From contig CAWUHX010000020.1 of assembly GCA_963922205.1 (NCBI GenBank), positions 930,001-994,000 of the forward strand: a stretch of 64,000 nucleotides of DNA, written 5' to 3'. This DNA is from Romanomermis culicivorax. Lineage: Eukaryota > Nematoda > Enoplea > Mermithida > Mermithidae. Shown piece by piece: positions 9,771-46,357 of the stretch (position 1 is its first letter; every line of letters starts with the position of its first letter). The notes beneath the pieces are model-generated. The model saw nothing but the letters and a program-made list of their open reading frames with translations. It was not told the origin of the DNA and did not search any database. A program made the position numbers and the translations under genes.

Positions 9771-9807
9771 ACCTTTGCCCGCTACTCGGGGCTTCAGTAA
9801 AAGTTAG

Positions 9808-9880
9808 GCTCGGTCCGGGACTTGAACCCGGGACCTTGCGGCTACCGTCCGCACGCTCTAACCAACTGAGCCAACCGAGC
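9808..9880 (-). tRNA. tRNA-like module, anticodon GGT (Thr-like), probably SINE head
   Basis: Read on the minus strand it folds as a cloverleaf. Acceptor arms GCTCGGT/ACCGAGC pair fully, D stem GCTC/GAGC, anticodon stem TGCGG/CCGCA and T stem CCGGG/CCCGG all pair. The anticodon loop ACGGTAG would give anticodon GGT (threonine), but position 33 is C where tRNAs almost always have U. With the repeat context this suggests a SINE head rather than a working tRNA, although a functional gene cannot be excluded. Confidence 0.5.
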
Positions 9881-10038
9881 AACGGGAAAGGTGCTCTCTT
9901 TTTTTGCAACAATTCGTAGTTGAGGTGGTTGCTGTGACCACTCTCAACATCCTTCCGCCGTCGAGTTTGACGGACCGTCAAGGGCCACCAGTGTTGGGGC
10001 GACCTTTTCCCGCTACTCGGGGCTTCAGTAAAAGTTAG

Positions 10039-10111
10039 GCTCGGTCCGGGACTTGAACCCGGGACCGAGCGACTACCGTCCGCATGCTCTTACCAACTGA
10101 GCCAACCGGGC
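10039..10111 (-). pseudogene. Second tRNA-like module (decayed)
   Basis: This is the same module as at 9808-9880, 231 bases away. The acceptor arm now reads GCCCGGT against ACCGAGC, with one mismatch. The 3' side of the anticodon stem has changed, so it no longer pairs well with TGCGG. The A and B boxes are still recognisable. Confidence 0.55.
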
Positions 10112-24717: not shown

Positions 24718-27700
24718 TTACGTATGCCCAACTTCGCTGAAATTCGGAGGATCGACGATTCCGCTATCACACTGAAAATAAAACCTGAATGATTTGAAAT
24801 TTTGAAGAAAACATGACTAAGAATGAATATATAATGCTGCTGCGCAAAAAAAGCTGACATTGAAAAGTTAGGGATATGATCAGGAAGTACTTCTATTAAA
24901 TCGCAAAGCGTTTCAAAGTTTTTTGCATGCTAAAAATTTTCAAATGATTCTCAGAAAGATCGCATGATTTTCTGGAGTTTTGTTACCTTTTCGTGTACAG
25001 GTAACAAGTCCGTTGAACTAGTAGTATCTTCATCTAATGTTCCGGCCGAAAATAAAACATTCGATTCTTGGGACGTGCTGAATCGAGAATTACCATCTTC
25101 AAGACTTCCTAATTGCTCCAATAGTCGAGTATTTTCCTTTTCCATGTCAGCGTCAGTTTCCGAAAGGCTAGACTCTTCCGAAACTGAAAAATTTGAGTCG
25201 ATTAAGAGCATACAAACTCAGACAGTCAGTCGTGATTAATGTAAGAAAGTGAAATTGTTGTCGAATGTCAAAATGATTTTTATATGAGAGAATAGCTTAC
25301 TAACACTCAATTCAAAAATTTTGCATCCTTTTGAGATAATCATAACATTAAGAGTCACGTGTCATGCACGACTCAGAATGCTGTAGAACCCACCGTCCGA
25401 AAGATAAATGCTGCTGTGTCGTGGACGAGTGATTTTCGACACTAAGGCTGCTAAATCCGTGAATGAACTAGTCGTTATTTGTCCGGTGGTCAAAAACTAA
25501 ATGAAGATACACACTTTAAAGTTGATATATAAGAAAATTGATCTATTTGAAACAAGGAGCTTATTTTCGATAACTGCCCAAAAAAGAAAAATTCCGTATT
25601 GCGTCTCTATCTTTAGTCTTTCCCACATTTAAACTTTTAGCTTTCTGTTAAAAGCAATCGACCGGGGGGGATTTCAAGAATCTCATTTTGAAGATGTTTC
25701 AAATGTCAACAGATAATTGTTGCCAAATTTCGGCAAAAAAACCACAGAAACGGATAATTTCAGAAATTTACTTTGTAGTCCTGATGAAATCAGCTTACCG
25801 GCGGTGGATATGCTGCCCTGGTTAACGATTCCTTTTTACTCAACAAAGCTGCGGGTGATGTGGAACTGAAATTCAAAATTTCGTCTAGTTTTCCATTTTT
25901 CGCCCATTCGTCGAACAACTGTTTACCGTATTCGTAAGCGTTATTCTATAGAAAAAGGAAATCTAACATAATGAAATCAACTCGATGAGGGAACATTGCA
26001 TTACAAAAATTTCTTCGTATTTCGCGAAATCTAAGGTTTGATATTTGTCGATTGGTGCCCGAACGTAATGACAATAGGAGGCTTTTTTGACGATTTCTAA
26101 TTGACGCACGCAGCTGACGTAGGCTAAACGGGACTGAATTTCGGCCATATTCAACACCTTAGAAAATCATTGAAAACAAAATTGCACGCTATAGTTTAGT
26201 CATGCATAGAATTTATAACAATTCAAACACATTATAATGGACGTTTTAAAACAGTTAAAAAAATCAATTTGTTGCTTTTTTGCATGCGATTACTCACGAC
26301 TTTGCAACGATTTAGGGCCAGTTTTATTCTACGAAAAGCATGGTGAGAACCAGTAATCAGCAAGATTTTGATTCTCATGAGGGTTGTTTCAGGCTACGTG
26401 TTACTCACTTTAACGGGTTCCGTGAATGGCATCCATTTTTTCCATAATACCCACCAACCGGATAATGAATCTCCATAATTAGTCAAATCGGTTTCGTCTT
26501 GGGCCCCAACATCCACAGCGATGACCGTATTGATGCCTAAACCGCGCATGACGTCGGCTAGAAAGTGTATGTATCTCTACATCATGAAAAATTCAACCAA
26601 ATATGGTAAACAGAAGGAAACATGCACAACTGTCATGCAAAAGGTAGGACAAAGTGTCCTCGGCGAAAATTTAGCAAACAACTACGACCGATATTAAAAA
26701 GCTCGGAAAAGGAATCAGGTTTCCCGTAGACATACCATAAGCATGCATTTACAGTACGAAAGTTTTAAACAAACGAAAACCAGGGACGTTGTTGTTGCAG
26801 AGCTAGCTGTTTTCCGGCTATATGCCTCATGTTGATTAGTACTGTTTTTAAACAGTTTTGATCCACAACGTATATTGATGATTTGGAAACGTTTGTTCGG
26901 CTAAAATAGAAAAGGAAAAATAGAGAAGGTGCCAAATACTTTATCGTGAAAGGCGCTGAAACTTTCGTCAAAACCTCAAATCAAATTAGCTTAGCGTGAA
27001 TATTAGTCGAAAGCCGAAAAATTCAAAATTAAAAATAACCTTTGAGTAGCGTCCAATGCGGGATGGGTCAAAAAAGTACCATTCCTTCTCTAGTGATAAG
27101 TTCTGCTGTAGCTGAACGATCATGCTTTTTTAATCCATGTTAATCAGAAATGAATTCGCCGCATATTGCGTAAAGCAGCAACCGTGAGATTCATTCAAAT
27201 TATAACTCACTGAAATCAAAACACATTATGGTCATTCCAGTGTAGTACATCACATCAAGCGAGCGTGTTCAATGTATCGTACTAGAGCCCCGTATATACT
27301 AGTGGAGCTTAGGAATCCTTCGCGACAAGTCGATTTCTGAATATGTTAGCGGAATTCATGCAAACATATTCATGGTACTATGGTAAACTGATGACCTTCT
27401 GCATGAATACGCAAAAAATCGGAACACTTTTATCGAGTACGGATTTCGCCAAGGATTACTAAGCGCCGCTCTCCTGTTGAGTTTTAGCTATCATAAAACT
27501 GCAAGTCACTCCGCAGGGTTATAGCGACTATTGTACGATTTGAAGTTATAGTAAAAACGATTCTTTTCCAAAAAATAACTAATATAAAGTTTATAGATTA
27601 TTTTCCATGAAGCTTTCAAGCATCGTCGGAAGGGAAACTAATAAATGTTGAGCATCAACTATGCATAGGTTTCGTTTCTAAAAAATTTACATCCCAAATT

Positions 27701-30700
27701 CTAGAAAGGACATAATTATAGACTCGGGAGTCCGAACCTATTACGCGGGCCTTCATGAGTTAGATTCAATTTATGAACTTATTTCACGGGTCAAAAATAA
27801 AGTAGAATATAGGGAATACGGTCTAAAATCAACATTCTATTTTGTATTCCTTATAGATTGATATAATATGTTACAAAAATAGACCTAATGAAAATTATTC
27901 CCACGAAATTTCTCTATCTTCCTATTTCTTTCGTGGCCTAGAAATACTGAAATAGAAAAAAGAGGCAGAAATGGAAAAGTAGCAAAATACTACATGCGTC
28001 GTGCAATGCTAAGGCATGCGAAAATTGGGAAGCGCAGTATCATGAATATTATCCGTTTTTGGAGACCGATAAGATGGTGCGAAACAGCGATCGAATTAAT
28101 CTTATGAAGTATAAACACTTTGAAATAAAAAATATTTGATTCAGTAATTAAATCGATCAAAAAAGTACTCCAAGAGAGGAAGTGCCTCAGTAAAGTCTCA
28201 AGAATTCATGATTACATTCCCAGTACTTCTATGTATGACCATTCAAAGTTTCACAACTCTACAAGGCAAAAAAATTAAAAATTCAAATTTTGAGCTATTT
28301 TTATATCCGAATTGTTAATTTTCAGATTATTTTGCATTTCTGGTCAGGCATAAAGCATTTTAAACGGGGAACCATCCAAAGTCTTCTACTACAACAATGT
28401 CTATGTTATGAAGAAGTGCACAGGTTGAGTAACATAAGTGCTTTTTCATGCTAATCTGGTTTTCAAGAAATAGTAAAACACGAATCAGAGTCACAAACCT
28501 GGCAAATTGTTGACGTATCCACCGTCCAAAAGCAAATGACTATCACCGGGGTCGCAAACCGGGGGCATATAACCGGCTAATGACATGCTAGCTCTGCAGT
28601 AACGCCACAACGAACCTGGCGAAAAAGCGAAGAAAAATCTGTAGAAAAAGGCGTTCACGCACCTGGTAAATTATTGATGTAACAACCGTCGACCAAATAA
28701 TGATTGTTGACGGGATTGCACATAGGCGGCAGAATGCCACAGTAGGACATACTGGCTCTTATGTAGCGCCACGCTTCGCCTGGTAAGACGAGATGAAAAA
28801 TTTTGAAAATATACTTTATCGAAAGCACTCATCTAAGAAAGAAAACTTCTTTTCAGATAAATTTTAGAATTTTGGCAATATTGCAACAACTTTCTCTTGC
28901 CTTTTAGTTTTCTTAATATTATCTAGCCGATTTCTGTTCATAATATAGGATGGAAATAAAAATGAAATAATCGAGAAAATTCTTTTCTGCGATGGAGCAT
29001 GACAACAAACCGTAGAATTCACGTCTTTCAGAGAAATCGAAAAATCACGAGTGTGTATGAAAAGAATGAGGCGAAAACTCAAGAGACACGTGTGATATAA
29101 AAAATTAAAATATATTCTCATAATATTCCGCTAAAGCTAACTGAACCCTGAGATTTTTGATCTTACCGTTACGATGAATTCGCATTTCCGAAGACGAAAT
29201 ATCCGTAGTGACGTTGAAATATGGAATCCATAAATCTTCGATCTGGCAATCATTAAACTGATTTTTCAGCGTGCTATTGAATGCAGCACCTACGTCAGAA
29301 ATTGTAATAATGACATATAAATCAATGGAAAATCCGCTACCTAGATTGCTGCATAATATAAATCTATAACGGTATATTGAGCTCCTTTTTCATTATACCA
29401 GTGAATTGACAGATTCCTAAGAATTCCTGGTCTCTCGTTCATAAAATAAAATTTGGGGTGAGGTACCATAAGAGTCCCCTCAAAAGTCGTCGATCATATT
29501 ACCAGCTAAACGGCGACACTCTCCACGATTTTCCAGTCAAATCGCTATCATAGGGTAACCCCAGCCATAAAAAAACCGACCGATGTCTATTTTTGATAAA
29601 ATATTCATTTTTGAAAACTGTCAAAAGTTTCACTTTAAGCTATTCGTGCCATAAATACGAATTTTTACTGGTGTTTAGATTACAAGAACTATTTTTAATC
29701 ATTTCTCGATTTCTAGGCAATAATTTCAATCTTTCTTTCCTCCAATGACTCCGCTCAAAATTTTGTAAAACGTTTCAACCAATCTATAAAAAACTGCCGC
29801 TGAAGCCCAAACGCACTCAACTTCAGAGCTCCGTTAAATGTAGACTTCGCTAAATATTAACAATTTCAAATTGCAGTATGGAGTGAAAAATACACGAAAC
29901 AAACACAAATGCGTTCATGAAGTTTTATGGTAGAGAAGCTTCTAAAAAGTTCAAATGTATGGAGGAAATTTTTAAATTCGAAATTTAACAATTCTCTTAC
30001 CGGTGAATATAGCTGAACTCGGATACGTTAAATCAAGCAATTTACGCCAAAATTGGGACATTTCCTGTATAAAAAATGAAAACTCAAAAGCCGAATGGGG
30101 AAAAGACAATTCATAAATGATTGATACCCTGAACCAAGTTTTTGCACGGTTGATCAGGTGTGTTACGTCTGGGTCCATAGAAAACAATCCACCGACAAAT
30201 GATCCGATACTAACTCCGCCTATGACGTCGATGGGCACGCCAACATCCTTCAGGGCTTTCAATATTCCGACGTGAGCAGCGCCTCTAAATAAATACACAT
30301 TATACTCACTTTTTCGACAAAACATAAGTGTCCAGTGAATTATTGTATCTGAAAATCGTACATAGGATGACGAAAAATTCGAGAAAAATAAAACATCATC
30401 TGCCTTATTATTTTCGAGCACGATGACTATGAACACACGTAGGAGACAAAAAGCAATTTCAAAACGGATTTAACGGTTACCTGGCTCCGCCGCCGCCCAA
30501 TACGACACCTATAGCTCTTCCGGTTAAAATCCTAGCCAAGCGTGAGAAATCCGAAAACTTATCGATAGGCTGTGAGAAAAATTTGTTGTTAAGCATCGAG
30601 CTAGAACAAACTATTTGAAATTTAGTTGCAGAAAATTGAATTTCATAAAAATAATTTCGAAGATGTGGATCTCCACGTTTTAATCAAGAACTTTCCTAAG

Positions 30701-33700
30701 CCGGCAATTTATATGTAAATATCAAACATGCTTGCGCACTTCATCATAACCTACAAGCCAGGAGTGTGATACCGGTCGGTATTAATATGATATTTTAGTA
30801 ACTGACTATTGTTGTGCTGGAACGGCGCACTCGCATACGTTGCGGCACCTTCAGATGATAATGCGATGAAACCCAACCTCGAACGTCCAACCATTCTGCC
30901 GTGCGCCTTGGTTGTTCGACGGATTCGTCCCATAATATAATGAGTTCTTTTTGAGCACGAACCGCCAAACTTTCCAGTTGTTTTTCCACCTTAAGAATGA
31001 TAACAGTGATCCCAGGTTATGATTGAGAACTAATGACGTTTCGAGCCACGCACATATAATAGATGTTGTTTATCACTATAATTTTTAAATAATCATTCAG
31101 ACTAAACGAAATGTGAAGTTTGAAGAAAAAGTAGACAGTCGAACGCGAAGTGTTCATCTCTCTAATTTTTTTTTCAAACTCTATGAACTTAAATGGCTCA
31201 GGGAGTACGGTATCTTATAATCTATTCTCAGAACTGTTCCTTAACACATGGGGTTTAATTTGATGGTTTTGAAGAATATGGTGAGATTTTTGATAAGATT
31301 ACTCAACAACGCCGTGTGAACTGAATGTTCTTTGTTTTTTGCAATGTTTTTTGTGTTTTTGTGCGAAATATGGAATTATTCCATTTCGTTTTTATTCGAC
31401 TCTCAAGAAATTGTATAAAACGCACTAGAAAAGTGTAGTAAAACAAACTTTCTCTGAAGGATTTCAATCTAAGTTTTGTTTCCTGAAAAAAAGATGAATC
31501 GCTTAGTTTTAGAATCAAAAATTATATCTTGAGCAACAAATTACTTGACATTAGGGGGAAGTGCCATACGAACGCACCCCAGAAATCGTCGACCATATGG
31601 CTAGCCACTGAGCGATCCCCACAGGATTTGCCAATCCTATAGCTAGCCACATGGTAGCCATAGGGACCGCTATACTCTTGGTCAGAAAAACATTGAAAAA
31701 TATTAATCTTTTCGGCGCTTCGAGCTATAAATAGGTACATCTTTCAACGGTTTTTAAAACAAAAATAATGATTTTTGAACTGCTTTTCATATACTTTTTT
31801 TGCAAAAAATCGAATTATTTTCCTTAATGAATCCCTCCCTTAAAATATTGGTGAATCGATGACCCTCAGCGTCAAAAATGTCGCCGAATCCAACCAGACC
31901 TCGGGGCTTTGTTACATGTATGCTCGACAATAGGCGGAAAGTTAACTACTAATCGAGAAATTTGTTAACTTCACGTTACAGACTGAAATTGATTCAGAAT
32001 TTTTTGACACTTTTTGATTTTTTAGTTATTACTTTTTCGACGCTTCAATATTCAAAAAGCGATACTAAATTTTGTTTATTATTTCGAGTGATCTTTAACT
32101 CTGACACAACTCTTAGGAAAAAACGCAATGATAAGAAATGAGCCACTGCCTTCGTACGTCTTCCAAGAGCAATTATTTTATTCTACAATAAGATTATCCG
32201 TGAGAAACTGTATTGTAAGAACTGAAGACCCGATTGAGCAAATAGGCCACTGGGAGAAAGCAGCAGAAGATACTGCAATTTTCTATTATCTCAGTTATCA
32301 TAACACCAAATTGAAGGGCGAATGCTGACATCATACTCGTGCAACTTACGGGTCCAACAACAGGTTCATCTTCGCCATTCGCGACGATTAAAATACAATC
32401 TGCTTGACGTATACAGCGCCGGCTCCAATTGGTCAGTTCAAAATCACACTGATACAGAACGATGGGGTAAGAATCTTCTTGTTGACTGAGCCAAGTCATC
32501 AAGTGGTATTCGTTAACACTAGAATAAGCCAACATTGAGAAGCGCAAGTATAAGATAATCAAAAATATGGAAGCTGAGAACAACTGGCCCGCAAAAAATT
32601 AGTATAGATTGTTACGACAATGAATTTTTGCGCATTGCGCCGGATCGCATCAAGCGGACGTCATTAAAAAAAAATTCGCACCAAAATTTCTTTCATTCAG
32701 ATTATAATCAGGTAAGCAACGCACAAAATGATACTCAAGTCCAGATTCACAACAAAGTCATCAAACGTATATCATGTAATTGGGGGCATCCATAAGAAAC
32801 CACCTTAAGTCGTCAGCCATATTAAGCACTTCCCGAAGATCAGCCAATCATATGGCTGAAATAGGCTAGCTATAAAAACTTTATCTTTTTGGTCGAAAAA
32901 AACTGAAAAATTTCAAATGTTTATTCAAAAATGGTCATTTTCGAAGAAAAAGGGTTCAAAACATAATTTTTTCTGCTCATATATACATACATTTTATTTA
33001 CTTAAACAAATATAACTATTTGTGGACTTAAAAAGACCTAAAAATCGAAATTTTTTCTCTCAATGAGCCTCCAAAAATTTCGGGCAATGAATTGCCCTAT
33101 CAAGCTTTTTTCCGCACAGTGCCAAAAAATTTTTGGAAATTTTCCGCACATAAATTTGGGCGTTTCTGCTGCTGGCATTGATGAAAAGGTGCATTTTGGT
33201 GCGATTTAGAAGGTCAAAATTATATATTTTCCGGCGTTCCTATATTTACTACAATTACGCTGAAATACGGCCAAAAAGCTTGGTTTCATTTCTCAGTTAT
33301 CCTTGATTGCTTCTATGATTCTACTGTCGCATATCATATTAGACATACATGCACATATAGGAGGTAGGGGGTAAACTCCCTTATCTGAGACCCTGGCCAC
33401 GTTCCTGGCCCAAAAAATCGTCAAACAGCCTCTCTTGAACCTTTTCCAAAACAGTTTTTTTTGATGATTTTTGTGCATACTTTGTATGAAAAACAAGCTT
33501 GTAGAACTTTTTTTTTGTTTTTTTTTGCTCGCCCACCCCCTACCCCCTGGACAAAAAGCCCAAGGACCCTTCCCCCTCGAAAGTTCTTGCCGTGCATGTC
33601 TGTATTAGAGTTAGAAAAACTGAAAACTTTATTTCAAAATATGGTGAAAACTGGAATATTTCGATGAATATGAATTAGTTGATTTTTCTCTTATTTCTAG

Positions 33701-36700
33701 ATTCATTCATTTAATAAAATCATGAGCTTTGGTATTCAAAAATTCTCCGGCGCTACACGTCGGAAAAGTTAAACACCGGAAAAGGAAAAGTTACCTAAAA
33801 TACCTCATATCATTTTTCAGCCGATAATATTCATTATTTTGGTTAGATTTTGTAAGAAATTGGGATTTTTTATTGATCTTCATACATTCTTATTCTTGCT
33901 GAGGTTTTCTGAGCATCGTGAACACAATTTTTTTGCTGGGCGATAATGAAGACGTCATTTTATACTGAAAATGTAAAGCTTTCCTTCTAGGGATAAGTGT
34001 TGGAAAGATTCTTTTCCCAGTGTTCTAGAATATAAAAATCTACGATGTTATGTAATTCTTCAACTTTAATCACAGAAATGTTAGAAGCAGCTGTTTTTTG
34101 CTCAATTATTCTGATAATGTTGTTGAGTTGGAAACATTATTCCTGTGATTAAAGTTGAATTTCAAATGATTTCAACTTGGAACGAAAAAAATTTTTCGTG
34201 TGCGGAAAAAATTTTGAGTTATTTCCGCACGATATGGACAACGGCGTGCGGAAAAAAATCTGAACCACAAAAAAACCGCTCTATCTCCACAGACCTCAGA
34301 GCTCCGTTGCATTTATCGTGTGTTATGTCTCTCCAACAATCAGGTAAACATTGGGAAAGGCGTTTTTGCCTACTTCGATTATAAACCACGTACGTGATGG
34401 AATAATAGAATATACTTTAGTGCACGCACCTCTCTAAAACATGGGCTCCCAAATTTTTTACAATAACGTCGGACGATAACTCTAAAGTAGGTTTGATGGA
34501 ATTCAATGCATGCCAGAGCTCTAAGGTAAACGTGGCGACTGGTACGTTCTCCGATACACCCATAACAGCGATTGTATTTAAATTTGCCACAGTTGGTAAA
34601 GCTTCCAAGTTTCCTTAACATCAATAGCATTTTCAAAAGGAGTACTCTAATTATTTTATTCGAATTTTACAAACCGACGGTCAACCTTTGTTCGTGCTGC
34701 TTTAGGATACAATTTCCGAGTAACTGTATGATACGCGTTAAAACCTATAAAGCATAAGGAGTCATATAAAGCAGAGCTTCAATCCGCATCGATTTTCTTT
34801 GAGATTGAACAACAGTCTTATAGCTAGCGATAAGCGCCATATATTACAGTAGCTCAACGTGGGCTAAAATGAAATCTTTTTGTTTGAAATTTTCAAATCG
34901 ACATTTCTAAATCAGGCACAGTTCCAAAATCGTAGAAGAAAATTAGCGTTTAACGAAAAGTACCAGGATGTATAAGGAGAGCAATAACAAAACACTCACT
35001 TGAGGATATTTATACTTGATGAGATTCAACAAACCCGCAGGTACTTTAGCAAGCTCAGTATATCGAATAGAGAGAACGGTTGTCGCGCGAGGTTTCAACG
35101 TTAAAAGCTCCACCTGTGATAGGAATTAGTCAACTTCCTTCATGAAAAAAAAATTCAAAAATATTACCGTTCCAACTAAATCGCCTCTACCATATTCTTC
35201 CACCAGTTCTTTAGAGCCGTCGTCCTTAGTCAGCACAGAACGTAAACGTCCGCTTAACACGACGTATAGCGCATCAGATTCATCGTTTTGCCTTAAACGA
35301 CCTATGTTAGGGTTTCATAAAGAAATACGTCTAGACTTGAATTGAAATGTAATGTTGCATATATCGATCCAAAAAGAAGGAAAGGGATATTCATAAGAAC
35401 TTCCAAACTTCCAATCAGTTCATACAAAATAAAATGTCGACATTAGGTTCGGAGTGAGCGCCTCACTGTTAACTATTTGACATGTGAAACGTAAAATTAC
35501 CCATTCATTTTTATTAGAGTTGTTACTTGTATAAGGCACGGCCAGCGTCACACATTTCTAAGCCTAAAGCGAAATCTATCGATCGTACGAAAGGAGATAA
35601 TTGTAGAGTGACCCCGCGGGCTACAGCCAGAACTATTCTTGGCTTTTCGCTAAGTAATCTGAAACAAAATTTGCATGACGACGGGCTTCACTCGTGAAAC
35701 AAAGTTTTTGAATGACCTGTTAACGATAATTCTGCTCTGCCACAAACATTTCCCGCAATTTCCCGATGAAATACAGTTAAGGTAGTGTTAGATCCCCGAG
35801 AAACTGCTTCGGAAGTAATAATCAAGACTTTAGAATAGCACAACTTATTTTTGGATAGCTCGATCGAAAATTGACTTATGCAACGTGTCGACTAGTCTCA
35901 CTAGTAATTCAGAATAAACAAAAAAGCTTATATTCCGAATACTCACTCATAAAAATGATCTTTCTTGATAATCGCTAATCGCGAAAATTGTCTGGTTTTA
36001 CAAGAATAGAACGATGGTTCTCCAGTCAAAACGGCTAGACAGCCCGCCATTTCTTGACAGTGGACAATAGACAATAACATTTCGCTCTCATTAACCGTAT
36101 TTCTTGTCAATTCGAGCGATCCGTTCAACACGTATATCAAAGGTACATTCTGAAAAATTTGTGAGCATAATAATGTATATGCAAAAATCATGATCACAAC
36201 TGCACTTACTAAGGATCCTTGTTCACACAATATGTGACCCGGCTGAAACGTTTCGATAGTTAGTCGACCAATAAGTACTGATTCGTCCTGAAGAAAGACG
36301 AGAAAATCAATCGAATAATACATACTATGAAAAAAAGAAAATCGATTCCTCCGATACCGTTTGATGCAGCAACATTGTGAAATTAATCAAATAACGATTT
36401 AAGGATATGATGCAGACTACCCCATAGGCAGAGGTATGAGGGGGGTATTACCCCTACCTAAAGTTCTAGAAATCAATCACTAATCGCCTAATTTTGAGAT
36501 AAAAAGACGTGTTTGGTGGATATTTAGCTACGCTTCCCCCTGCAAATTTTCAACTTTACCCCTACCTGAAAAGTCTGACCTTGGGGACCCCTGATGGGAT
36601 GCCATGCCAAACTGATTGATAGGAATGCAGACAAAACTGGGCAATGGCGAAGGTTCTTTCTGGTAGGAGAATTTAAATTCTCGATTGGTTAGTTGGCTGC

Positions 36701-39700
36701 CTGCTTGTTTCCAGCTCGAAATCCATTCAATTTTTACTTTTTGCACAAATGTATGAAAAATGACTGATTTCTAGATGTTTTTTACGGTTTTCTAACCGAA
36801 AACTGAATTTAATAAATATAAGGGATTAGGAAAACTAGAGATATGTGTGGTCCCATCACTCTTTTTAACCCTAAGCTGTTCAGTTGAACCAGAGATCCCC
36901 AATGTCAGACTTCTCCATACATGTAACGGAGCCCTGAGGTCTGGAGGGGGGGTCGGGCGACTTTTTTGGGGCCGGGGGTTACTGATTCACAAAATTTTAG
37001 GTGGGGCGGCCTCTAAAAAAAAAAGTAATTTTTGTCAAAAAAAACTGTAAAAAATGCATTCATGGCGCGGTGCAAAGAGAAAATTGACATTTTTGACCAT
37101 TTTTTGTTCAAAAACAGACTTTTCATCAAAAAATTGACATTTTTCAGTATTTTTCCGATCAAACGTATGGGGCTCCCTGTGACTACCATATGACTAGCCA
37201 TAGGATTAAAAAATCCTGGGGGGTCGTCCAATGGCTATCCATATGGTCGACGATTTCTGCGAGTATTCATATAGCACTTCCCCCAATTACATGTATATTC
37301 TCAGGTAGGGGTGAAGTTGAAAATTTGCAGCGGTAGTGTAGCCAAATGTCAACTAAACACGTCATTTTGTTTCGAAAATAGGCAACCGGTGATCAATTTC
37401 TAGGACTTTAGGTAGGGGTAATACTCCCTCATGCTCCTCTCTGTGGGCAGTCTGAGTTGAACTTCTGTGGCAGGAGCTCAGATACTACCAAAGAATTTTA
37501 ATCATTTACGCTTTCTCTGGAAAGATTTTCTTAGCGAAAACCTATTACCAATATATATTTACTACACAAACAAAATCCCAGTTTACACCCCCTACTCAGG
37601 CTGACTAACCTTAACTGAAAAGTTAGTATCACTGTTTTTTCCACGCAATTTTTTCCACAATAGCCTTAGGGTGTAAAGATGCAACAATTTTTCAACACGT
37701 GGGATTTTTTCAAAAACGCGTTTTCTTCTCAAAAATGTTTACAGTTGATGTGCGAAAGCATTTTTAAAGTTATTTTTGCATAAAGCTGTTCAGGCCTGTA
37801 GGCAGAGGGTTTGGGGGGGCCATAGCCCCCCCCCCCGAAATGTTCCAAGTGTTGAAAAAAGCAAAACCTTTGGTCATGAAAATGAAAAATTCTAATCAGG
37901 AGTGCCAATCTTACAGTAAATCGAGTGAAAAATGTGTAGCCCCCTCTAAAAAATCCAGGCTACAGGCATGAGGCAGTTAATCACATAGCAAATTCTCAAA
38001 ATCAAGGAAAAAATTAAAATTTTCTCAAATTAAGCAATAAATGTTACGTATAAAAAGCTTCTCTCACAAGATTTTTATGCTTTAAAGCTGTTCTCGGACA
38101 GAATAATAAATCTTACACAAAATTCAAGTTAATAATACGTACAAAATAATATCCTGCAGCAAAAAACATGTGAAAGTTGGAATAAATTTTAAAATTTCAA
38201 TCGAATGAACGTAATGAAGAACTGACTGGATGAATATTCTTCAAAATCTAGCTATCAAAGCCTGGAGATTAGAAATGGAAATTAAGCTCCTAAGATATGA
38301 TTTGACGTTCATCAAATGATGAACTAGGGAAAATTTCATATTTCAATTTGCCTATGAGCATCATAATTCCTCATATTCCACAATCAAGAAAAAATAAGAA
38401 TAAGATCAACAGAAAAGTTGGATTACTAATTATTCTTTGAAAAGTGTCAAATATTAACGTTTAGAGATGGAATAGAACATTACATATGCACTAAAACAAT
38501 TGGACACTAATTGAATAATGGTATACTAGACTTTGCTGGGCTAGAGTCATATTTACATACATAAATATTGTCAGGCTTATTTTCAGATTGCATCTTTTTG
38601 ATTTGGACCGCCAAATTTTTCTTCAAAAAACGACTGAATCATAGGAATCAGAGGCGAAATTTCCCGACCTCTGTCGGTCACCTCGTGCTCAAATCCAAAG
38701 TTGTTGAGTTTTCTATAGAAGGATATACCAGAATTGTGAGAGAAAATTAAGATCTTGAAAGTGAAGCTCAAAATCAGCATTTATAAAACAGTACCAACTA
38801 CACATAAAACAACATAGGAATGGGCATGAGGGGATTGTATTCCTATACCTAAGATCTCTAAAATAGGTCAATGGGTATCCAAATTTGGAGAAAAGTGGCT
38901 GTTTTAGTGGGTATTTGTGTACACTTCCCCTACAAATTTTTTGTGCCCCTAACGGAAAATCTGACTTTGTGGACTTCTGGTGCCACATCAGTGATTGTGA
39001 TGCATTCAGCAACTATGATCGTGATCTAAAAGCTCATAATTAAGTCATTATCATGTATTTGGCTGTAAAAGTTGAAAATTTTTTCAATGCTGAACTTTTG
39101 AAATTTCAGGAAAATGCACGTTTTGAAAAGCTAAACGGAACAAACAGCGGTACCGTTAAGAACCGGAATTTTCATAGAGAGCATCGGCTCCCGTTCTGAT
39201 ATTTAAAGTTATTTAGTTCCAGTTCTATAATTTCAATCGGTTAAAATCGGTTCGGATTAAGCGTTGCACTTTCCTTCGAGCAAATGGATTTTAGGGAATG
39301 TGGTGAATAACAAAAAAGATGACAAAAAACTACTTCTTACTTATGTATGGAGTGGAAGAAAGGAAAATATTTCAAAAACATGAAAAATCCTCACTTCTAA
39401 ACCAAAAACCTTGGCCATATATTTCAATGTTGAATCGCCACCAGATTCTTTGACTTCGCTTTCTTCAGCAGTGGAGACATGCTCTATCGGAGAAGTAAGA
39501 TCCTTTATCTCGCTGAGATCTAAATGTCCAACTGGTTTACTATACAAATTTGGCAATCTCTGTAAAGTCGCGGTAAAAGCTGAAGAAAAATATTGGAGTT
39601 ACAAAAATGCGATAAAATTAAAGTGCAGAGAAGAGCTTTAAGCTTTCATAGGCATTCCACGTTTAGATTTCATCGCTCACCAAACCAGAAACAAGCATAG

Positions 39701-42700
39701 TAAAAAATGAAAAAATGTTAGAGGCTTTCACCTATATTTCGGATATTTATCCCATCTCGTTTAGCTTGAATCCCGAAAAAAATATTCGACAGACTTCGAA
39801 TTTTCCGAAAAATTTTGAAATCATTAAAATCTCCATTCAGCCTGACTGATAAGCATATTACGTGTACGGAAACGTGGAGCTTCATATGTAGCAAAAACCG
39901 TTGCTTGAGAAACATTTTAGTTGAGTTAAAACATATTCGACGGAAAATTTTCAGATTGTTTTGCGGTTTCGATACCGAGTAATGATTACCTTCAACAGCG
40001 CAGCTAGACGAACGATTGGTAGCAAAAGCAGCTCGGGCTTTTGCAATAGTATCGTGCCTACTTTCTAGTTTTCGGGTTGGTATTTCTTTGATAACCTTAA
40101 GAATTCGTAAATCAATTTGAAATTAATTCGGATTATTTTTCCACACGGCAGTCGACACAAGACTCCATTCTAAATATTTTGAGGCAAGTCACTCATTTAT
40201 TCTTCTAGTAAATGGAACGACCATTTCACGCATGATAATAGCAGCGCTTCTTCACAGGAGAAACGAAAACATTGAAAACTATTAGGATTTGGGAATATTC
40301 CTACACGTAACGGAAATTGGAGGTCTGGCGGATCATCGGGACTTTTTATGGATGGGGTTAAAGACTACCTAAAGTTTAGGGAAGAGGATCACTGAAACAA
40401 AAAATATCGGAATTTGGTCCCACAAACCAGAAAAAATGCGTCAAAGATAGTTCTCGTGGTCTAAAAATCCATAAAAATTCGTACTAATGGCGCGTTGTGC
40501 CAAAAAACTAACATTTGTGATCATACTTGATGGAAGACGATAACTTTAAAAATAAGCTTTTTGAGTTTTCTTTTCATCTGGAAGGATGAATGTACCTATG
40601 CTTAGCTCTATGATGAGTCATAACATTGCAAAATACTTAAAAGATCGCTAGTTCTTGGAGGCCTATGAAACTTCGGCAAAAATAGGGTTTACAATTTCTG
40701 CTTCAGCAAAAAATTGCGAAAGATAGACAAAATAATTGCCCATCAATATTGAAAATTTTCAAGGTATACCATTTTAGTTAGTTCCTGGGACAATCCCAAA
40801 TAAACGTGAAGAGTAGCCAATGTGACCCGTTGCAGCGTTAAAACTATAATTTGAATAACTCGCAACCAACTTTCTTGATATTTTTCGAATATATCGTTAA
40901 AGACTTGAGCGCATAATCTGAAACGTACTCATACATTTTACAACAAATTCCAGTACGTCCAACAGTTAAAATAGCGTATACTTGAGAACAATCGAGTCTA
41001 CGTCGGCCCTAGCCGAGCAAGTTTTGAAAGGTGCTGTACTCCCCTGAAAAAGCGGGTGCTCATAATTCTTAAGCTAAAACAGATTATTTTACCGTTAAGA
41101 CGTCTAATATACTGAGCAAGCTATAAACACTGTCGCCCTTGGGGACAATTTTGACCGGAAATTCTTCGTCGTGTTCCTCGAAAACAAAAATAACAAGTAT
41201 GTTCTCAAACCAGTCATTCAATGGGCAAATACTCTTCTCCACGAAAACGCAGAACATACTTTGATGTATACGGTAAGTTGGCCTTGCTGTACAACATAAA
41301 TACTGTCGTCGCTATCGCCTGGTTTAAACAATGTATGCCCGACGGGAACTTTTATAACTTCCATATGTTTACAAAGCTCCAAAAATAGCGGCGCTTCGAA
41401 ATGACCAAAAACACTGAAATACCGAAATCCGGAAAATGCAGGAAAACGCACGTAACTAAAGTTCCATAACGTCTCAAAATGATTTACCGTATATTTTTCA
41501 GCATATAGACAAGTTCGGGCGGCAAATCGGAATCCGAAATGGAAGTGTCGGCTTCAAAAAAAGCTGCTGGCGGTCTTTTTGTGGGCCTAGTCGCTGTTTC
41601 CATGTCTAATCGCAGCATCCTGAATCATAATTCACGAACAGATAGCTACTAAATTAAAATGTTGTCCAGCTATGCATCATAATGATAAAAAACAATCAGT
41701 ATGGTGATAAATTTCATGGAAGACTATTTTTCAAATTTTTTCTATTCTTAAAGAGAAGCAAGAGTTGCGTACATCTGATAATTTTCGTTCCAATATCAAA
41801 ATATCTACCTCCTGGCTATTCGCAACAATCGTTCACGTTTCCGCATTTTCGGCTTTCCGTTAGAAGACCCGCTATTTCCGAAGCTTTTGACCTACGTATT
41901 TATGATAGTGCTACAACGTAAATATAATTCTGATCTGAGACTTCTAGGATAAATTTTACAGGATGTCCAGCGGTTTTTCAAAATGAAATTTGCCGACTTT
42001 CGCGGGTTTTCCAGGTTTTTCGGTGAAAAAATCAACTGCTTGTTATTTTAAAAATAGTGTACCATAGAGAGACCTGAGCAATGTGCTGATAGTTTTAATC
42101 AGCCTAATAGTGCCTCAAATAAACTAGAAAACCAAAAACAACAGCTAGAAATCAACCGTTTTCCACACATTTGGTCAAAACAACAGTTTCACAGTTTAGA
42201 ACTGATAAAGGTAAGTAAAATTCAGAAATTAGGCAGCCAATCAAAAATATTTTCTCCGACCAGCAAGAACTTCTGTCATCGCCCAGTATTGACCAGAGGC
42301 TGTAAACACGTATAACACTTTAAAGCAGACGCTATACTGAAAAATTCTATTAAATTGATTTTAAAATATTTTCACAACATTTTTTTAGATTCTGCGATTA
42401 ATAAGCATAACATTTTTTTCCTAAAATAAATTTTCTTCAATATTACAGTGCTTATTTTTCAACAATTCAATTTCTGCTGCCACATTTCTTGTTCCAGTAG
42501 CTGTCTATTTTTCTTTAAGTAATTCTGTAATTCTGTTTCAATACTTTGACAGCTTCTTTGTGCTGAAAGTTGCTGTTTTTTAAACACTCGGCACGAAGAA
42601 GCCGAGAGTGGCAAAAAAGGCACTCATACAATTGAGTAATGCGTTGGATGCATTCCACAATTGTGTAAAGCCCCCAATTTTTTTCGCAAATAAGATTTTC

Positions 42701-45700
42701 CAAAACACATTTCTGCTTAAAAAAGCTAACATAGCTGCTGTAGAATGAATAATAATTATTAGGGATGGGACAAATTCACTTTCTTGACTGTATCGGATCC
42801 GGAACTTTAAAAAATCGCTATATCGGATCGGGATCATATATAAATACATATTGTATATATAAAAATACAGGCCTGTAGTCAGGGGTGGGTTGGGGGGCAA
42901 GGCCCCTCCCGAAATATTTTTGGTTTTTTTTCAAGAAAAAGTCCAAGTCAGATGTGCCAATTTTACAGTGAATTGAGTGAAAAAATGTGTGTCCCCCCGA
43001 ATGGTAACATACAACATTCCACCCGTAGGATTGATGTTGTAGCCAATCCACGGGTCCCGATCCCGGCCATTTTTGTTGGGCCCTGGTCGGGATGGTTACA
43101 CCTACTCCGACATTAGCCAATGGTAGAACAGCTAGGGCACCACACAGGAAGCCCTTCAACACCTGTACTATAACAATATATGTGACTGAAATGAATATGT
43201 TTGATTTTTCGAAATCAAGTTGAGAATTCATATTTCCTAACAGTTTAATATTTATTATGATACTTATTGGAATGAGACGGCGGTGAGCCAATTGAAACAA
43301 GAGCTCAAAATCTTTAGACTAGACTCTTTTGAGAGGTTCTATCAGCACTATGTAGAAATTACCGGCGAAATTCTGCACTAAACAAGTTTTTCCTGTTCCA
43401 AATAAATAGAAACAAATAAAAAATTTTAATACTTTCGCTTCAGATTTTCAGCCGGAAAATGATGGTGATAAATAAATGAAGAAAGACTGTGAGAAAAATG
43501 CATGGTTTCATATTCATCGTAAGAGGAAAGTTCTAATTTTAACTATTCATTTTCATAGAAAATGACGATTTTTAGTCACTTTAATATGAGGTGAGACACC
43601 GTAGATTCGTAGAAAGAATCAGAGATAACTGAGTCATAAAACTACACTTCTTTTTGACCATATTTCAGCTTAACCACCGGAAGAATTTAAAATTTTGAAC
43701 TTCTAAATCACACCAAATGCACCTTTTGATCATGAATTTTTCCACATGACCAAAAAATGTGGCAGAAAAAAGCCTGTTTGGACTGTTTTTTCTTATTCAG
43801 GAGGTAAAATGACATCTGCAAAGTCAATAACGGATTAAGACTTATGATGTAAACTGTTTTTTACAGACAAAACCAATGAGAGTTCACATTTACAGTCCTA
43901 CCTGAAATGGTCTAAATTGTGATACAGTTAAAAATTATTGTTCATGAGATATAATTTGGCTACTCTTGGTTTGGAAATTTGGACAAATCAGTGCAAGCCC
44001 AAGTAAATATAGTTCCCACAATGACCGGATCTCAGTCTTGGGCAGCGTCGGATGCGAGTCCGGACGTCAGAAACTTCCAATGATTGGATCCGGATCTAGA
44101 AATTAGGGCGGATCTTCGCGGATACAGGTACCTGTCTCATCGCTAATACTTATTGAAGTGACACTAGCGTTTTTAATGGTGTACTCACCCCAGGGAGAGT
44201 TTTAGTACCTGTTTTACTCCTAGACTACATAAATTTTATGTATCGAAAGCATAATGTAATCTTAATCTAGCGGCTGAATACTCATCAAAATTTAAAGTGT
44301 ATCAACTGCATTTTGGCGATAATAATCCGAAATATGAATACAGGATTAACGATAAACTTCTGCCCCAGAACAGACCGTTGTGTCAAAGATTTGAGTGTGT
44401 TGTCGGAAAATCGGACATCTAATAAAATGTCAATACAATAGTAAAACATGCTTATTCCAGACTTCATTATATTTTCATAAGTTTTGTTAACTAACAATGT
44501 TTTCCTACTAAACCAAAGCATGTGCAGTTTACGCGAAATGATATCATTGCACAGCCATTTTTACTGCCACAAAGTGCTTAGACTGAGAGTTATTGTCTAT
44601 TATCATGTTTACAAGGAAAAATCTCTACTAGAATTAATTCATTTTTTTGTAGTAGCGCTTCTGACTAAGGTGCACCCTACCCCTGTAACTCACATGCCAA
44701 ATTCTCAAAAAAAAGGAAAATATAAAATTCGTTTCAATGTCATCATGTGCAAAAAATATGTTATACAAAGCATCTCTCATAAGGGTTTATACTTTAGCTG
44801 TACTTCAATGCGATCAGAATATAAATCTTACTGCATTACTAGCTCTCAGTATCTGGACATCGTGATTAAAAGTAAGCTTTCAAAATATTTCTCAATATTA
44901 ATCAATGATGTTATAACAATCATCAAGTTGGCAAACATAATAATATCAGCAGAAAAGTTGAAATCCCACGTACTCATTAAAAAGTGTTAATAATTAGAGA
45001 CGTAATACAACCATAGATGCGCTAAAACAATTAAATCATATATGAACATTTGGGGTAGGGGGTAGACGCTTACCTGAGACCTTAGACGCCCATATGAATC
45101 GAAAAAAATCGTCAAGCAGCCCACCCCAACTTTTTCTAAAATTTTTTAAAATTATTTTTATGCATATTTTATGGAAAACATGCTTGTGATGTATATAATC
45201 TTTTTGTTTTTCTTTGCTCACAAACCGCTCACCCTCTCGATGAAAAGTCCGAGGATTCTCCCCACAGGAAATTTCCTGCCGTGCATGCCTGAATTAAATG
45301 TTAATTGGATAAGGGTGACTGAACTACACATTAACAGATACTCTGTGCCTGGGGAATCACGCGACTTTTTTGGGGCTGGGGTCACCACTTCCCCAAAATT
45401 TCAGGGCGGTCCCCAAAGTACAAAAACTTGATTTTTTCATCAAAAAAATCCGAAAAACGCTTCGAAGACACTAATTTTTGTCACAAAATCGGTGGAAAGT
45501 GCATTCATGGCGCGAAACGCCGAGAAAACGGACATTTTTGTTCAACAATTGACATTTTTCAGTATTTTTCCGATCAAAAGTATTGGCGTCCACCACATGG
45601 CTAGCCATAGGATTTAAAAATCTTGGGGAATCATCCAATGGCTAGCATTTCTATAGAACACCCGCTCCAATTACATGTTCGCTCTCTTGCTACCAATTTG

Positions 45701-46357
45701 TTTATATGGGTTTTGTTAATTTTGAAAATATCGGGTCCGGGTCCAAAAATTTTTTAAGAATATCGGGTTCGGGTCTAAAATTTTAATAATATCGGGCTCG
45801 AGTCCGACAAAATAGTCGGGTAATTTGGGGTCTAGGTACCCGATACATCTCTAATGAAACGTTTGTGCCGGAAAATTTTGAGGTTTTGAACTTCTAAAAC
45901 GATGGCTTATCGGGCAATAATTTGGACTTAATCTTACAAATTTTCATTAAAATTCCCAGACTTTTCTAGGTTTTCCAGGTACAATCTTTTTCCCTGACTT
46001 TCCGACATTTTCGAGGTTGCTGGACATCCTAATTTTATAACGCAGATTGTCAGTAGGATCTCGTCAGTCAAAAAAATTGAGAAAAAAGGAAAAAAATTAA
46101 TAGCTTAGTGCCCGATAACCCCACTTTTATGGACTGATATTAGACATTAGTTGGTACTAAAAATAAAATATTTTTTCCAATGCAAAGCTCTCCCGGTGTA
46201 CGATAACGAAGTATGTATTTACGATAATGATATCAACTTACTTTACGCAAGACTTTTTTTGAATAGAGGAGTACTTTATCCCGTTTGCGTAGCTTGCCTG
46301 TAGATGAGTCGATATTGTCAACTTGGTCTTCACCGTTGAATGAACAGCGTCTTGATT
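24718..46357 (-). CDS. PNPLA6/7-like: Neuropathy target esterase homologue (patatin-like lysophospholipase), 5' end incomplete
   Basis: This is an ER-membrane lysophospholipase/phospholipase B family that hydrolyses phosphatidylcholine and lysophosphatidylcholine. Exons (minus): 46242-46357; 41488-41619; 41260-41413; 41093-41176; 40982-41043; 40770-40917; 39990-40095; 39395-39579; 36210-36287; 35947-36149; 35527-35658; 35168-35291; 35000-35113; 34675-34744; 34430-34613; 32350-32518; 30807-30989; 30481-30569; 30128-30284; 30001-30064; 29167-29289; 28663-28779 or 28499-28615; 26409-26557; 26005-26157; 25799-25945; 25394-25496; 24987-25183; 24718-24771 (TAA). From 41619 on, all phases join and give about 1,160 codons. 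The first exon carries [17 protein letters not shown], the family's juxtamembrane segment. Three cyclic-nucleotide-binding-like modules follow (e.g. [35 protein letters not shown]). The patatin domain has GGGGAR (about 734-739, counted from exon 41488-41619), GVSIG with catalytic Ser 764, and DGG with catalytic Asp 884. The exon(s) with the N-terminal membrane segment and the linker after 46242 were not found. Confidence 0.93.
26558..28498. other. Large NTE intron, nothing recognised
   Basis: This 1.9-kb intron joins the catalytic exon to the 26409-26557 exon. It contains only short open frames and no transposon family of the kind seen elsewhere in the window. Confidence 0.45.
28499..28615 (-). 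CDS. PNPLA6/7-like: NTE catalytic exon, version B (DGG, conserved)
   Basis: This 117-base exon has phases 1 and 1. It encodes a segment with [20 protein letters not shown] and [12 protein letters not shown]. The DGG supplies the catalytic aspartate of the patatin Ser-Asp dyad. It is close to the family consensus and is the likely default version. The acceptor follows a pyrimidine-rich tract ending in CGCCAG; the donor is GTTTGT, a weak site. It lies downstream of version A and joins to 26557. Confidence 0.9.
28663..28779 (-). CDS. PNPLA6/7-like: NTE catalytic exon, version A (DGC, divergent duplicate)
   Basis: This exon has the same length (117) and phases as version B, with 22 of 38 full codons encoding the same residue. 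It reads [20 protein letters not shown] and [11 protein letters not shown]. The catalytic aspartate is kept, but the following DGG/DGA glycine position is cysteine. It has good splice sites (acceptor TTACCAG, donor GTGCGT) and no stops, so it looks functional. Either version restores the frame. Including both would also keep frame but insert 39 extra residues in the active-site region. Confidence 0.85.
29449..29844 (+). mobile_element. CATACATG-family MITE, decayed copy 3 (NTE intron)
   Basis: The family order is recognisable: ACCATAAGAGTCCCCT, CGTCGATCATAT, then CAGAGCTCCGTTAAATGT at the right end. The left end is degraded. It lies in the intron between exons 29167-29289 and 30001-30064. Confidence 0.6.
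31540..31922 (+). mobile_element. CATACATG-family MITE, copy 4 (NTE intron)
   Basis: It shows GGGGGAAGTGCCATACGAAC, CGACCATATGGCTAGCCA and the right end GTTACATGTATG. The left end is mutated. It lies in the intron between exons 30807-30989 and 32350-32518. Confidence 0.75.
33101..34262 (+). mobile_element. CAGGGTTTTTT-type hAT-like element (CCGCAC word)
   Basis: It begins CAAGCTTTTTTCCGCAC and ends GTGCGGAAAAAAATCTG. The word CCGCAC or its complement appears at least five times near the ends. Flanking 8-mers are not clearly alike, so the boundaries rest on end symmetry and on the interruption of MITE copy 5. A 259-base MITE (33344-33602) lies inside it. Confidence 0.7.
33344..33602 (-). mobile_element. 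CAGACATGCAC-family MITE, copy e
   Basis: Reversed copy with ends CATACATGCAC and GTGCATGTCTG. The 7-mer TATTAGA lies directly on both sides (33337-33343 and 33603-33609), fitting a 7-8-bp target duplication. The inner blocks TTTTTTTGCTCGCCCACCCC and AAAAAATCGTCAAACA match the other copies. Confidence 0.88.
36414..37454. mobile_element. Inverted-repeat (foldback) element, CAGAC ends, interrupted by a MITE
   Basis: The left arm starts CAGACTACCCCATAGGCAGAGG-like sequence (36414 on) and runs through GAGGGGGGTATTACCCC to about 36595. The right arm (about 37310-37454) is its reverse complement, ending CTCTGTGGGCAGTCTG. Single arms of the same family occur near 38815-38995 and 48997-49175. MITE copy 6 lies between the arms. 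It lies in an NTE intron. No 8-bp duplication was seen. Confidence 0.65.
36916..37297 (-). mobile_element. CATACATG-family MITE, copy 6 (NTE intron)
   Basis: Reversed copy with ends CATACATGTAAC and CCCCCAATTACATGTAT. It keeps TATGACTAGCCATAGG and TGGCGCGGTGC in the middle. The 5-mer TTCTC lies next to both ends, but a full 8-bp duplication is not clear. Confidence 0.8.
37791..37968 (+). repeat. GCCTGTAG-family MITE
   Basis: The left end CAGGCCTGTAGGCAGAGGG is mirrored by CCAGGCTACAGGC at the right. The interior has GGGGGGGCCATAGCCCCC and TTACAGTAAATCGAGTG. Related copies lie near 14230, 42868 and at 63958 to the window edge. It lies in an NTE intron. Confidence 0.6.
37980..38550. repeat. 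Dispersed repeat, copy 1 (empty-site relative of 44690-45330)
   Basis: This AT-rich stretch is recognisably similar to 44690-45330: CAAATTCTCAAAA, TCTCTCACAAG, AATAAATCTTAC and CACTAAAACAATTGG. It lacks the 255-base MITE present in the other copy, so it shows the uninterrupted site. Confidence 0.55.
40300..40660 (-). mobile_element. CATACATG-family MITE, decayed copy 7
   Basis: Reversed, worn copy. It begins CCTACACGTAACGG, continues with GGTCTGGCGG and ATGGCGCGTTGTGCC, and loses similarity after about 40620. It sits between two NTE exons (39990-40095 and 40770-40917). Confidence 0.5.
42760..44145 (+). mobile_element. TAGNGATG-type hAT-like element (GGATCCGG word)
   Basis: Ends TAGGGATGGGACA and TGTCTCATCGCTA are reverse complements at 11 of 13 positions. 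Flanking 8-mers ATAATTAT and ATACTTAT match at 7 of 8. Words like GGATCCGGA and ATCGGATC recur inside both ends. A fragment of the GCCTGTAG family lies at about 42868-43000. A 160-codon minus frame (42818-43300) has no transposase motif that I can recognise. Confidence 0.82.
45037..45291 (-). mobile_element. CAGACATGCAC-family MITE, copy f (perfect 8-bp duplication)
   Basis: A 255-base reversed copy between identical 8-mers AATTAAAT (45029-45036 and 45292-45299). It ends in CCGTGCATGCCTG. The host sequence around it matches 38490-38520, which lacks the insertion. Confidence 0.92.
45327..45681 (-). mobile_element. CATACATG-family MITE, copy 8
   Basis: Reversed copy: CCTGGGGAATCACGCGACTT, then GGCGCGAAACGCC, ATGGCTAGCCATAGG and the end CCAATTACATGTTCG. 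The left end is worn. Confidence 0.7.
45720..45854 (-). mobile_element. Terminal fragment of a TAGAGATGTATCGGG-type element
   Basis: It carries repeated ATATCGGGTCCGGGTCC-like words and closes with ACCCGATACATCTCTA. This matches the end of the element at 46926-49533. The opposite end was not found, so it is a fragment. Confidence 0.6.

What the first reader, a model, noticed from the sequence alone, without database searches (positions are those of the whole stretch)
28499..28779. Duplicated, divergent catalytic-aspartate exon in an NTE/PNPLA6-7 gene
Two tandem 117-base exons of identical phase both encode the patatin segment with the catalytic Asp. One has DGG (family consensus), the other DGC, and they share 22 of 38 full codons at residue level. 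Both have usable splice sites and no stops. In the rebuilt protein the catalytic Ser-Asp distance is 120 residues with either exon. Alternative use would give two esterases differing right at the active site. I know of no such duplication in vertebrate PNPLA6/7.
Basis: partly seen in the sequence, partly recalled or inferred. Interest (0 to 1): 0.88.

Follow-up and report, generated by a model that had tools for sequence, protein, structure and literature searches.

The report
Ancient twin catalytic exons in NTE
An animal lipid-cutting enzyme gene carries two versions of the small exon that holds half of its active site, and matching pairs turn up in gene models of insects, a tick and many vertebrates, so it looks like a very old, little-noticed feature of a human disease gene family.

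Summary
On the minus strand, exon A (28779-28663, DGC) and exon B (28615-28499, DGG) are phase-matched 117-nt exons of a neuropathy target esterase (NTE/PNPLA6-7/sws) gene, 47 nt apart, with usable splice sites. 23 of 39 residues match; either exon gives Ser-Asp spacing 120.

The claim that this is unknown in vertebrates is wrong. All 120 listed vertebrate hits (of 346) carry a DGC copy followed by the DGG copy. In a second set of 76 hits, 21 insect and tick models (17 species) carry DGG then DGC, eight insect models DGC alone, and a tapeworm an A-like DGV copy before DGG. The A copies form one clade (92/88) on only 39 columns. Position 13 (always Leu in B, never in A) and position 33 (Gly in B, Cys or Val in A) separate the classes. 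A private duplication in this species is weakly disfavoured.

Best reading: an old tandem exon pair whose alternative use gives NTE forms differing beside the catalytic Asp. Splicing was not tested. Models with both copies in one protein are common, and a 49-nt intron elsewhere in this gene shows that 47 nt is no clear barrier. I saw no description in ten searches.

The parts
28663..28779 (-). Exon A: class-A copy of the catalytic-Asp exon ([39 protein letters not shown]), DGC
   Evidence: open, 117 nt, AG/GT flanks; groups with class-A exons.
28499..28615 (-). Exon B: canonical copy ([39 protein letters not shown]), DGG
   Evidence: open, 117 nt, AG/GT flanks; groups with canonical DGG exons.
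28616..28662 (-). 47-nt GT...AG stretch between A and B, close in length to the 49-nt intron 41092-41044 of the same gene
29167..29289 (-). Upstream exon ([17 protein letters not shown]); its donor can join A (387-nt intron) or B (551 nt)
26409..26557 (-). Downstream exon ([18 protein letters not shown]); its acceptor can take B (1941-nt intron) or A (2105 nt)
30128..30284 (-). Exon with the nucleophile Ser (GGVSIGSF)
30481..30569 (-). Exon with the glycine-rich motif (VVLGGGGAR)
25000..46325 (-). Approximate extent of the NTE gene found here: cNMP-binding domains, NTE P-loop-like domain, patatin domain, C-terminal tail. Ends not resolved; not every exon was modelled
   Evidence: (tblastn with P0003, P0132, P0141, P0153)

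Best explanation
This is an old tandem pair of homologous exons in the NTE (PNPLA6/7, sws) gene. Each exon supplies the same piece of the patatin domain with the catalytic Asp. B is the older form (Leu13, DGG, as in fungi). A is a derived, separately conserved form (Tyr, Ile, Val or Phe at 13; nearly always DGC in the sample). In this species one or the other is most likely spliced between the exons at 29167 and 26557; either choice keeps frame and dyad spacing. The two hydrolases would share membrane anchor, regulatory domains and nucleophile and differ in residues beside the active site, which would tune substrate or inhibitor preference. Shown: anatomy, class membership, wide distribution in gene models, saturated synonymous against limited amino-acid divergence. 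Inferred: one-at-a-time splicing here, activity of the A form, changed specificity.
For: Same exon length, phase and boundaries. A-B divergence pS 0.76 (saturated, 24.5 sites) against pN 0.28. A-class copies occur in vertebrate models (120/120 listed), insects and ticks, and an A-like DGV copy in Echinococcus. All 20 A segments form one clade against 13 B and 3 outgroup rows, 92/88. Position 13 is Leu in 13/13 B and 0/20 A; position 33 is Gly in 13/13 B, Cys in 19 and Val in 1 of 20 A. A private duplication (winA+winB): AU p=0.0525, 0.0255 without Echino_A. Eight insect models carry A without B (P0144-P0151), as one-at-a-time use would give. An A-only protein (P0149) is modelled with a largely confident patatin domain (blocks mostly 74-97 pLDDT, three dips to 40-63; the exon unit 92/63/79/74) that matches PlpD 5fya, target-normalised TM 0.81.
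Against: No RNA evidence. All 120 listed vertebrate proteins include A and B together, as do 21 insect and tick models; these may be longest cluster representatives or annotation artefacts, but none of the listed vertebrates is A-only. The 47-nt spacer is no clear barrier to joining A and B: the same gene has a 49-nt intron. A copies were found with DGC-bearing queries, so the prevalence of Cys is biased. With the Cys column dropped the A clade is not in the best tree, though not rejected (p 0.437), and the private duplication is not disfavoured (p 0.208). An arthropod-only duplication is not rejected (p 0.133). Order differs: A-B in window, vertebrates and tapeworm, B-A in arthropods.
Confidence: 0.5

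Rival explanations
1. Cassette use: A is an optional exon added to B, so the product carries both copies in tandem (39 extra residues and a second Asp in the patatin domain), perhaps an inactive or dominant-negative form.
For: 120/120 listed vertebrate proteins show both copies in one chain, 39 residues apart in 117 of them; 21 insect and tick models also carry both. Including both keeps the frame. The 47-nt spacer is close to a 49-nt intron that this gene uses.
Against: Eight insect models are A-only. AlphaFold2 gives a poor patatin region for a tandem protein (P0030, blocks 32-67 pLDDT from residue 621 on) against mostly 74-97 for an A-only one. This is weak: species and alignment differ, the whole tandem model is poorer (mean 53.3 against 69.0), and no B-only control was run.
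Confidence: 0.3
2. Independent duplications: the exon was duplicated separately in several lineages, and the extra copy each time drifted to similar residues, including DGC. (About origin; can hold together with either splicing mode.)
For: Order is A-B in window, vertebrates and tapeworm but B-A in arthropods. Lineus, Panagrellus and Anoplocephala representatives show only DGG. Without the Cys column vertebrate A and arthropod A are separate groups in the best tree. An arthropod-only duplication is not rejected (p 0.133).
Against: All A exons group together with the full 39 columns (92/88). Position 13 also separates the classes. Window A groups with arthropod A even without the Cys column (82/94).
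Confidence: 0.25
3. A is a decaying or unused exon copy in this species.
For: Lower Patatin score with A than with B (94.6 against 105.2 bits); no transcripts were seen.
Against: No stop, usable splice sites and frame, catalytic Asp kept, class-specific residues kept, fewer amino-acid than synonymous changes per site.
Confidence: 0.07

Closest known systems
Vertebrate PNPLA6 gene models (e.g. P0002 turkey, P0003 turtle, P0031 white shark, P0055 salmon, P0044 platypus)
   Same: DGC copy upstream of DGG copy, same 39-residue unit
   Different: Annotated with both copies in one protein; A copies read mostly SASY.PYLPP instead of [10 protein letters not shown]; genomic introns not seen here
Insect and tick sws gene models (e.g. 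P0001 Harmonia, P0127 Tribolium, P0132 Amblyomma, P0140 Glossina)
   Same: DGG and DGC copies of the same unit; the window's A is closest to a thrips A (74%)
   Different: Opposite order (B then A); eight insect models have A only
Echinococcus NTE (P0142)
   Same: A-like copy upstream of B
   Different: A-like copy reads DGVF and is strongly diverged; copies 81 residues apart in the model
Alternatively spliced tandem homologous exons in general (SNAP25 exon 5, OGDH 4a/4b)
   Same: Homologous neighbour exons that swap a piece of the protein (abstract starts seen in listings)
   Different: Those are described as spliced alternatives; here alternative splicing is inferred
[quoted passage not shown] 2008, Gene)
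   Same: A splice variant in the catalytic domain of the sister gene, by its title
   Different: Seen only as a reference-list entry in a passage of PMC13224342; not read, so whether it concerns this exon is unknown
PlpD of Pseudomonas (PDB 5fqu, 5fya; source organism recalled)
   Same: Patatin fold with DGG; sequence match E=3.9e-29, fold match
   Different: Bacterial, no exon choice

Membership tests
NTE/PNPLA6-7/sws esterases | NTE P-loop-like domain (PF24179) | tested here: met
   208.3 bits, cut-off 27
NTE/PNPLA6-7/sws esterases | Cyclic-nucleotide-binding-like domains upstream | tested here: met
   PF00027, 96 bits, two stretches; further exons by tblastn
NTE/PNPLA6-7/sws esterases | Patatin domain with GGGGAR, G-x-S-x-G and DG[GA] motifs (motif list recalled) | tested here: met
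   Patatin 94.6 (A) and 105.2 (B) bits; GGGGAR, GVSIG, DGG (B). With exon A the last motif reads DGC
NTE/PNPLA6-7/sws esterases | Lysophospholipase or phenyl valerate hydrolase activity | not testable with these tools
   Needs protein
Class-A catalytic exon of NTE (class defined here from the same data) | Non-Leu at position 13 and non-Gly at position 33 of the 39-residue unit | tested here: met
   Window A: Tyr13, Cys33; window B: Leu13, Gly33. Window A was among the rows used to define the class
Class-A catalytic exon of NTE (class defined here from the same data) | Common descent with vertebrate and arthropod A exons | tested here: inconclusive
   One clade at 92/88 with 39 columns; not in the best tree, not rejected, without the Cys column
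Mutually exclusive exons | Homologous neighbours of equal length and phase with compatible splice sites | tested here: met
   117/117 nt, phase 1-1, AG/GT
Mutually exclusive exons | Exactly one of the two in each mature transcript | not testable with these tools
   No RNA. Vertebrate gene models speak against strict exclusivity there
Mutually exclusive exons | Steric, frame or structural barrier to double inclusion | tested here: inconclusive
   47-nt spacer, but a 49-nt intron is used in the same gene; double inclusion keeps the frame

The most novel reading that the evidence does not exclude
Animals have kept, since the bilaterian ancestor, a second version of the catalytic-Asp exon of NTE (DGC class). 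Its regulated use gives a second NTE hydrolase with different lipid or inhibitor preference, including in vertebrate PNPLA6, a neurodegeneration gene, where it has gone undescribed.
Probability: 0.37. Interest if true: 0.87.

Novelty: new member of a known kind. Interest (0 to 1): 0.68.

Why it matters
PNPLA6 is the target of organophosphate-induced delayed neuropathy (recalled) and, per paper listings seen here, the gene behind Boucher-Neuhauser, Oliver-McFarlane and related syndromes. If it has a conserved alternative active-site exon, then enzyme assays, structures, inhibitor profiles and variant interpretation done on the DGG form alone cover only one isoform. The exon pair also offers a natural experiment: same scaffold, same nucleophile, two versions of the Asp-bearing segment in vertebrates, arthropods and this animal.

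Tried and rejected
Weakly disfavoured, not excluded: a private duplication in this species. AU p=0.0525 and 0.0255 without Echino_A, but 0.208 with the Cys column dropped.

Rejected: a one-base frameshift in the cyclic-nucleotide-binding exon near 41.0 kb. I suspected it from a misremembered stretch; the real bases and a tblastn alignment read through in frame.

Dropped on checking: the argument that the 47-nt spacer is shorter than all other introns of the gene. One search left out one exon; with it (41043-40982) there is a 49-nt intron at 41092-41044. I lowered the best explanation from 0.6 to 0.5, raised cassette use from 0.22 to 0.3 and lowered the novel case from 0.40 to 0.37 for this. 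My third checkpoint note still holds the old figure, and my second the uncorrected '2 DGC only'.

Corrected: two vertebrate rows that my script counted as DGC only (P0027, P0115) have both copies. The spacing count (115) was short and included Harmonia; positions give 39 residues in 117 of 120 vertebrates, the others being P0024 (77), P0050 (67) and P0119 (241).

Literature: ten searches. Nine had an NTE, PNPLA or sws term among the terms, with splicing or exon words; one search looked for surveys of homologous exons. I saw listings only, with the starts of abstracts: 3 of 3, 0, 15 of 143, 6 of 6, 15 of 1,475, 17 of 17, 8 of 40, 15 of 48, 12 of 203 and 12 of 179 papers. No listed title or abstract start described this pair. 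Term look-ups in the main texts of six papers found none of the gene terms I asked for: PNPLA in PMC4465641, PMC9741552, PMC5740500 and PMC7954323; sws, swiss cheese and CG2212 in PMC3228551 and PMC3303723. [quoted passage not shown] Supplements and subscription journals were not seen. Public databases already hold gene models with both copies.

Led nowhere or unanswered: arthropod-cuticle, transthyretin-like and SSU rRNA searches of the own genome. A nematode or nematomorph is inferred from 50 cuticle-collagen N-domain matches and from NTE trees: with Panagrellus at 99 SH-aLRT, flagged as a possible long-branch effect; sister to the arthropods at 96/95 without Panagrellus and other long rows, where placements with vertebrates, Lineus or flatworms are not rejected at 0.05 (p 0.066-0.079).

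Full report
What is there. The window holds most of a neuropathy target esterase gene on the minus strand, from about 46.3 kb to 25.0 kb: cyclic-nucleotide-binding regions, the NTE P-loop-like domain and the patatin domain. At 28779-28663 (A) and 28615-28499 (B) lie two 117-nt exons of the same phase with AG acceptors and GT donors, 47 nt apart. Each encodes the 39-residue unit that ends just after the catalytic Asp. A reads [40 protein letters not shown] reads [39 protein letters not shown]. They match at 23 of 39 residues and 73 of 117 bases. The nucleophile Ser and the Asp are 120 residues apart with either exon.

Age of the pair within this genome. Of the 21 conserved residues with more than one codon, 11 use a different codon in A and B. 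Synonymous difference is saturated (pS 0.76) while amino-acid difference is limited (pN 0.28). Searches of the 359-Mb assembly with each unit gave three matches: A, B, and one B-type exon (DGG) of a second, diverged NTE gene on another contig; no A copy was found in the 9.9-kb stretch fetched around it.

It is probably not private to this species. A protein search with exon A alone returned four clusters, and every one carried a tandem pair: Harmonia (DGG then DGC), and turkey, turtle and chicken (DGC then DGG). A search with the turkey A unit gave 346 proteins at E<=0.001, of which 120 were listed. All 120 carry a DGC and a DGG copy, 39 residues apart in 117; by their names they are vertebrates, from sharks and sturgeons to birds, platypus, koala and naked mole-rat. 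A third search with a blended invertebrate A probe gave 76 proteins: 21 from 16 insect and one tick species with DGG then DGC, 8 insect models with DGC only, one garbled tick model with pieces of both, one tapeworm with a DGV copy before DGG, and 45 with DGG only, mostly fungi by name but also Lineus, Panagrellus and Anoplocephala. The probes carried DGC, so copies with other residues at that place would be under-sampled, and models without an A copy do not show that the genome lacks one.

Two classes of exon. In a tree of 20 A, 13 B and 3 outgroup segments the A exons form one group (92/88), with window A among them and window B among the canonical ones. Holding the two window exons together costs 13 log units (AU p 0.0525; 0.0255 without the long Echinococcus A). 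Position 13 is Leu in all 13 B and none of 20 A; position 33 is Gly in all 13 B and Cys (19) or Val (1) in A. The fungal rows have Leu13 and Gly33, so B looks like the older form. Caution: 39 columns are few. With the Cys column removed the best tree separates vertebrate A from arthropod A, window A stays with arthropod A (82/94), one A clade is not rejected (p 0.437), and a private duplication is no longer disfavoured (p 0.208). An arthropod-only duplication is not rejected either (p 0.133). The order of copies is A-B in the window, vertebrates and the tapeworm and B-A in arthropods, which a single origin must explain by rearrangement or by loss from a longer array.

What kind of animal. With Panagrellus in the tree, the window's NTE joins it (99 SH-aLRT, flagged for long branches); without it and other long rows it is sister to the arthropods (96/95), other placements not being rejected at 0.05. 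The genome has 50 matches to the nematode cuticle collagen N-terminal domain. I infer a nematode or nematomorph; this was not tested further.

How it probably works. Both exons can be joined to 29167 upstream and 26557 downstream without changing frame. Eight insect models contain A without B. An A-only protein (P0149) gives a largely confident AlphaFold2 patatin domain that matches PlpD (target TM 0.81); a tandem protein (P0030) gives low confidence through that domain. The two predictions differ in species and alignment, the tandem model is poorer overall, and a B-only control was not run, so this is only suggestive. I favour one-at-a-time use in this species, giving two hydrolases that keep the dyad and differ in the segment beside it, at 0.5.

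Novelty. Tandem homologous exons are a known kind of gene feature; this is a new case in a medically important enzyme family, and an old and widespread one if the A copies share descent. In ten searches of an open-licence library, seen as listings, and in term look-ups in six papers on such exons, I saw no description of this pair. [quoted passage not shown] Supplements and subscription journals were not seen.

Noticed in passing
G000:C67:1152500-1162400 (L004), exon at L004 4729-4610: Second, diverged NTE gene in the same genome with a single B-type exon (DGG) and no A copy in the fetched stretch.
   Followed up: partly
9807-9880 and 10038-10111 (-): Two tRNA-Thr-like genes 231 bases apart within similar repeated sequence; possibly tRNA-derived short interspersed elements.
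   Followed up: no
62502-63341 (+): 280-codon open frame that looks like a non-LTR reverse transcriptase (FIDFQKAFDTVSH-like, GVPQGSVL-like and FADD-like stretches; recognition recalled, no family search run).
   Followed up: no
about 61117-61171, 58460, 47322, 37234, 31560 (-): Recurring stretch whose frames read like 'WLAIGLENPGG' and '[11 protein letters not shown]', apparently a dispersed repeat; seen by eye in the frame list.
   Followed up: no
P0123 (Sitophilus) and P0133 (Polyplax): In these models the two copies are 93 and 63 residues apart instead of 39, so something extra, perhaps retained intron, lies between them.
   Followed up: no
P0005 (Acipenser sinensis): One model shows three copies in a row (DGC, DGG, DGG), the last two identical in the 39-residue unit: a recent extra exon or an assembly duplicate.
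   Followed up: no
41092-41044 (-): A 49-nt intron in the cyclic-nucleotide-binding part of the gene, supported by the in-frame join to homologues; very short introns are in use here.
   Followed up: partly
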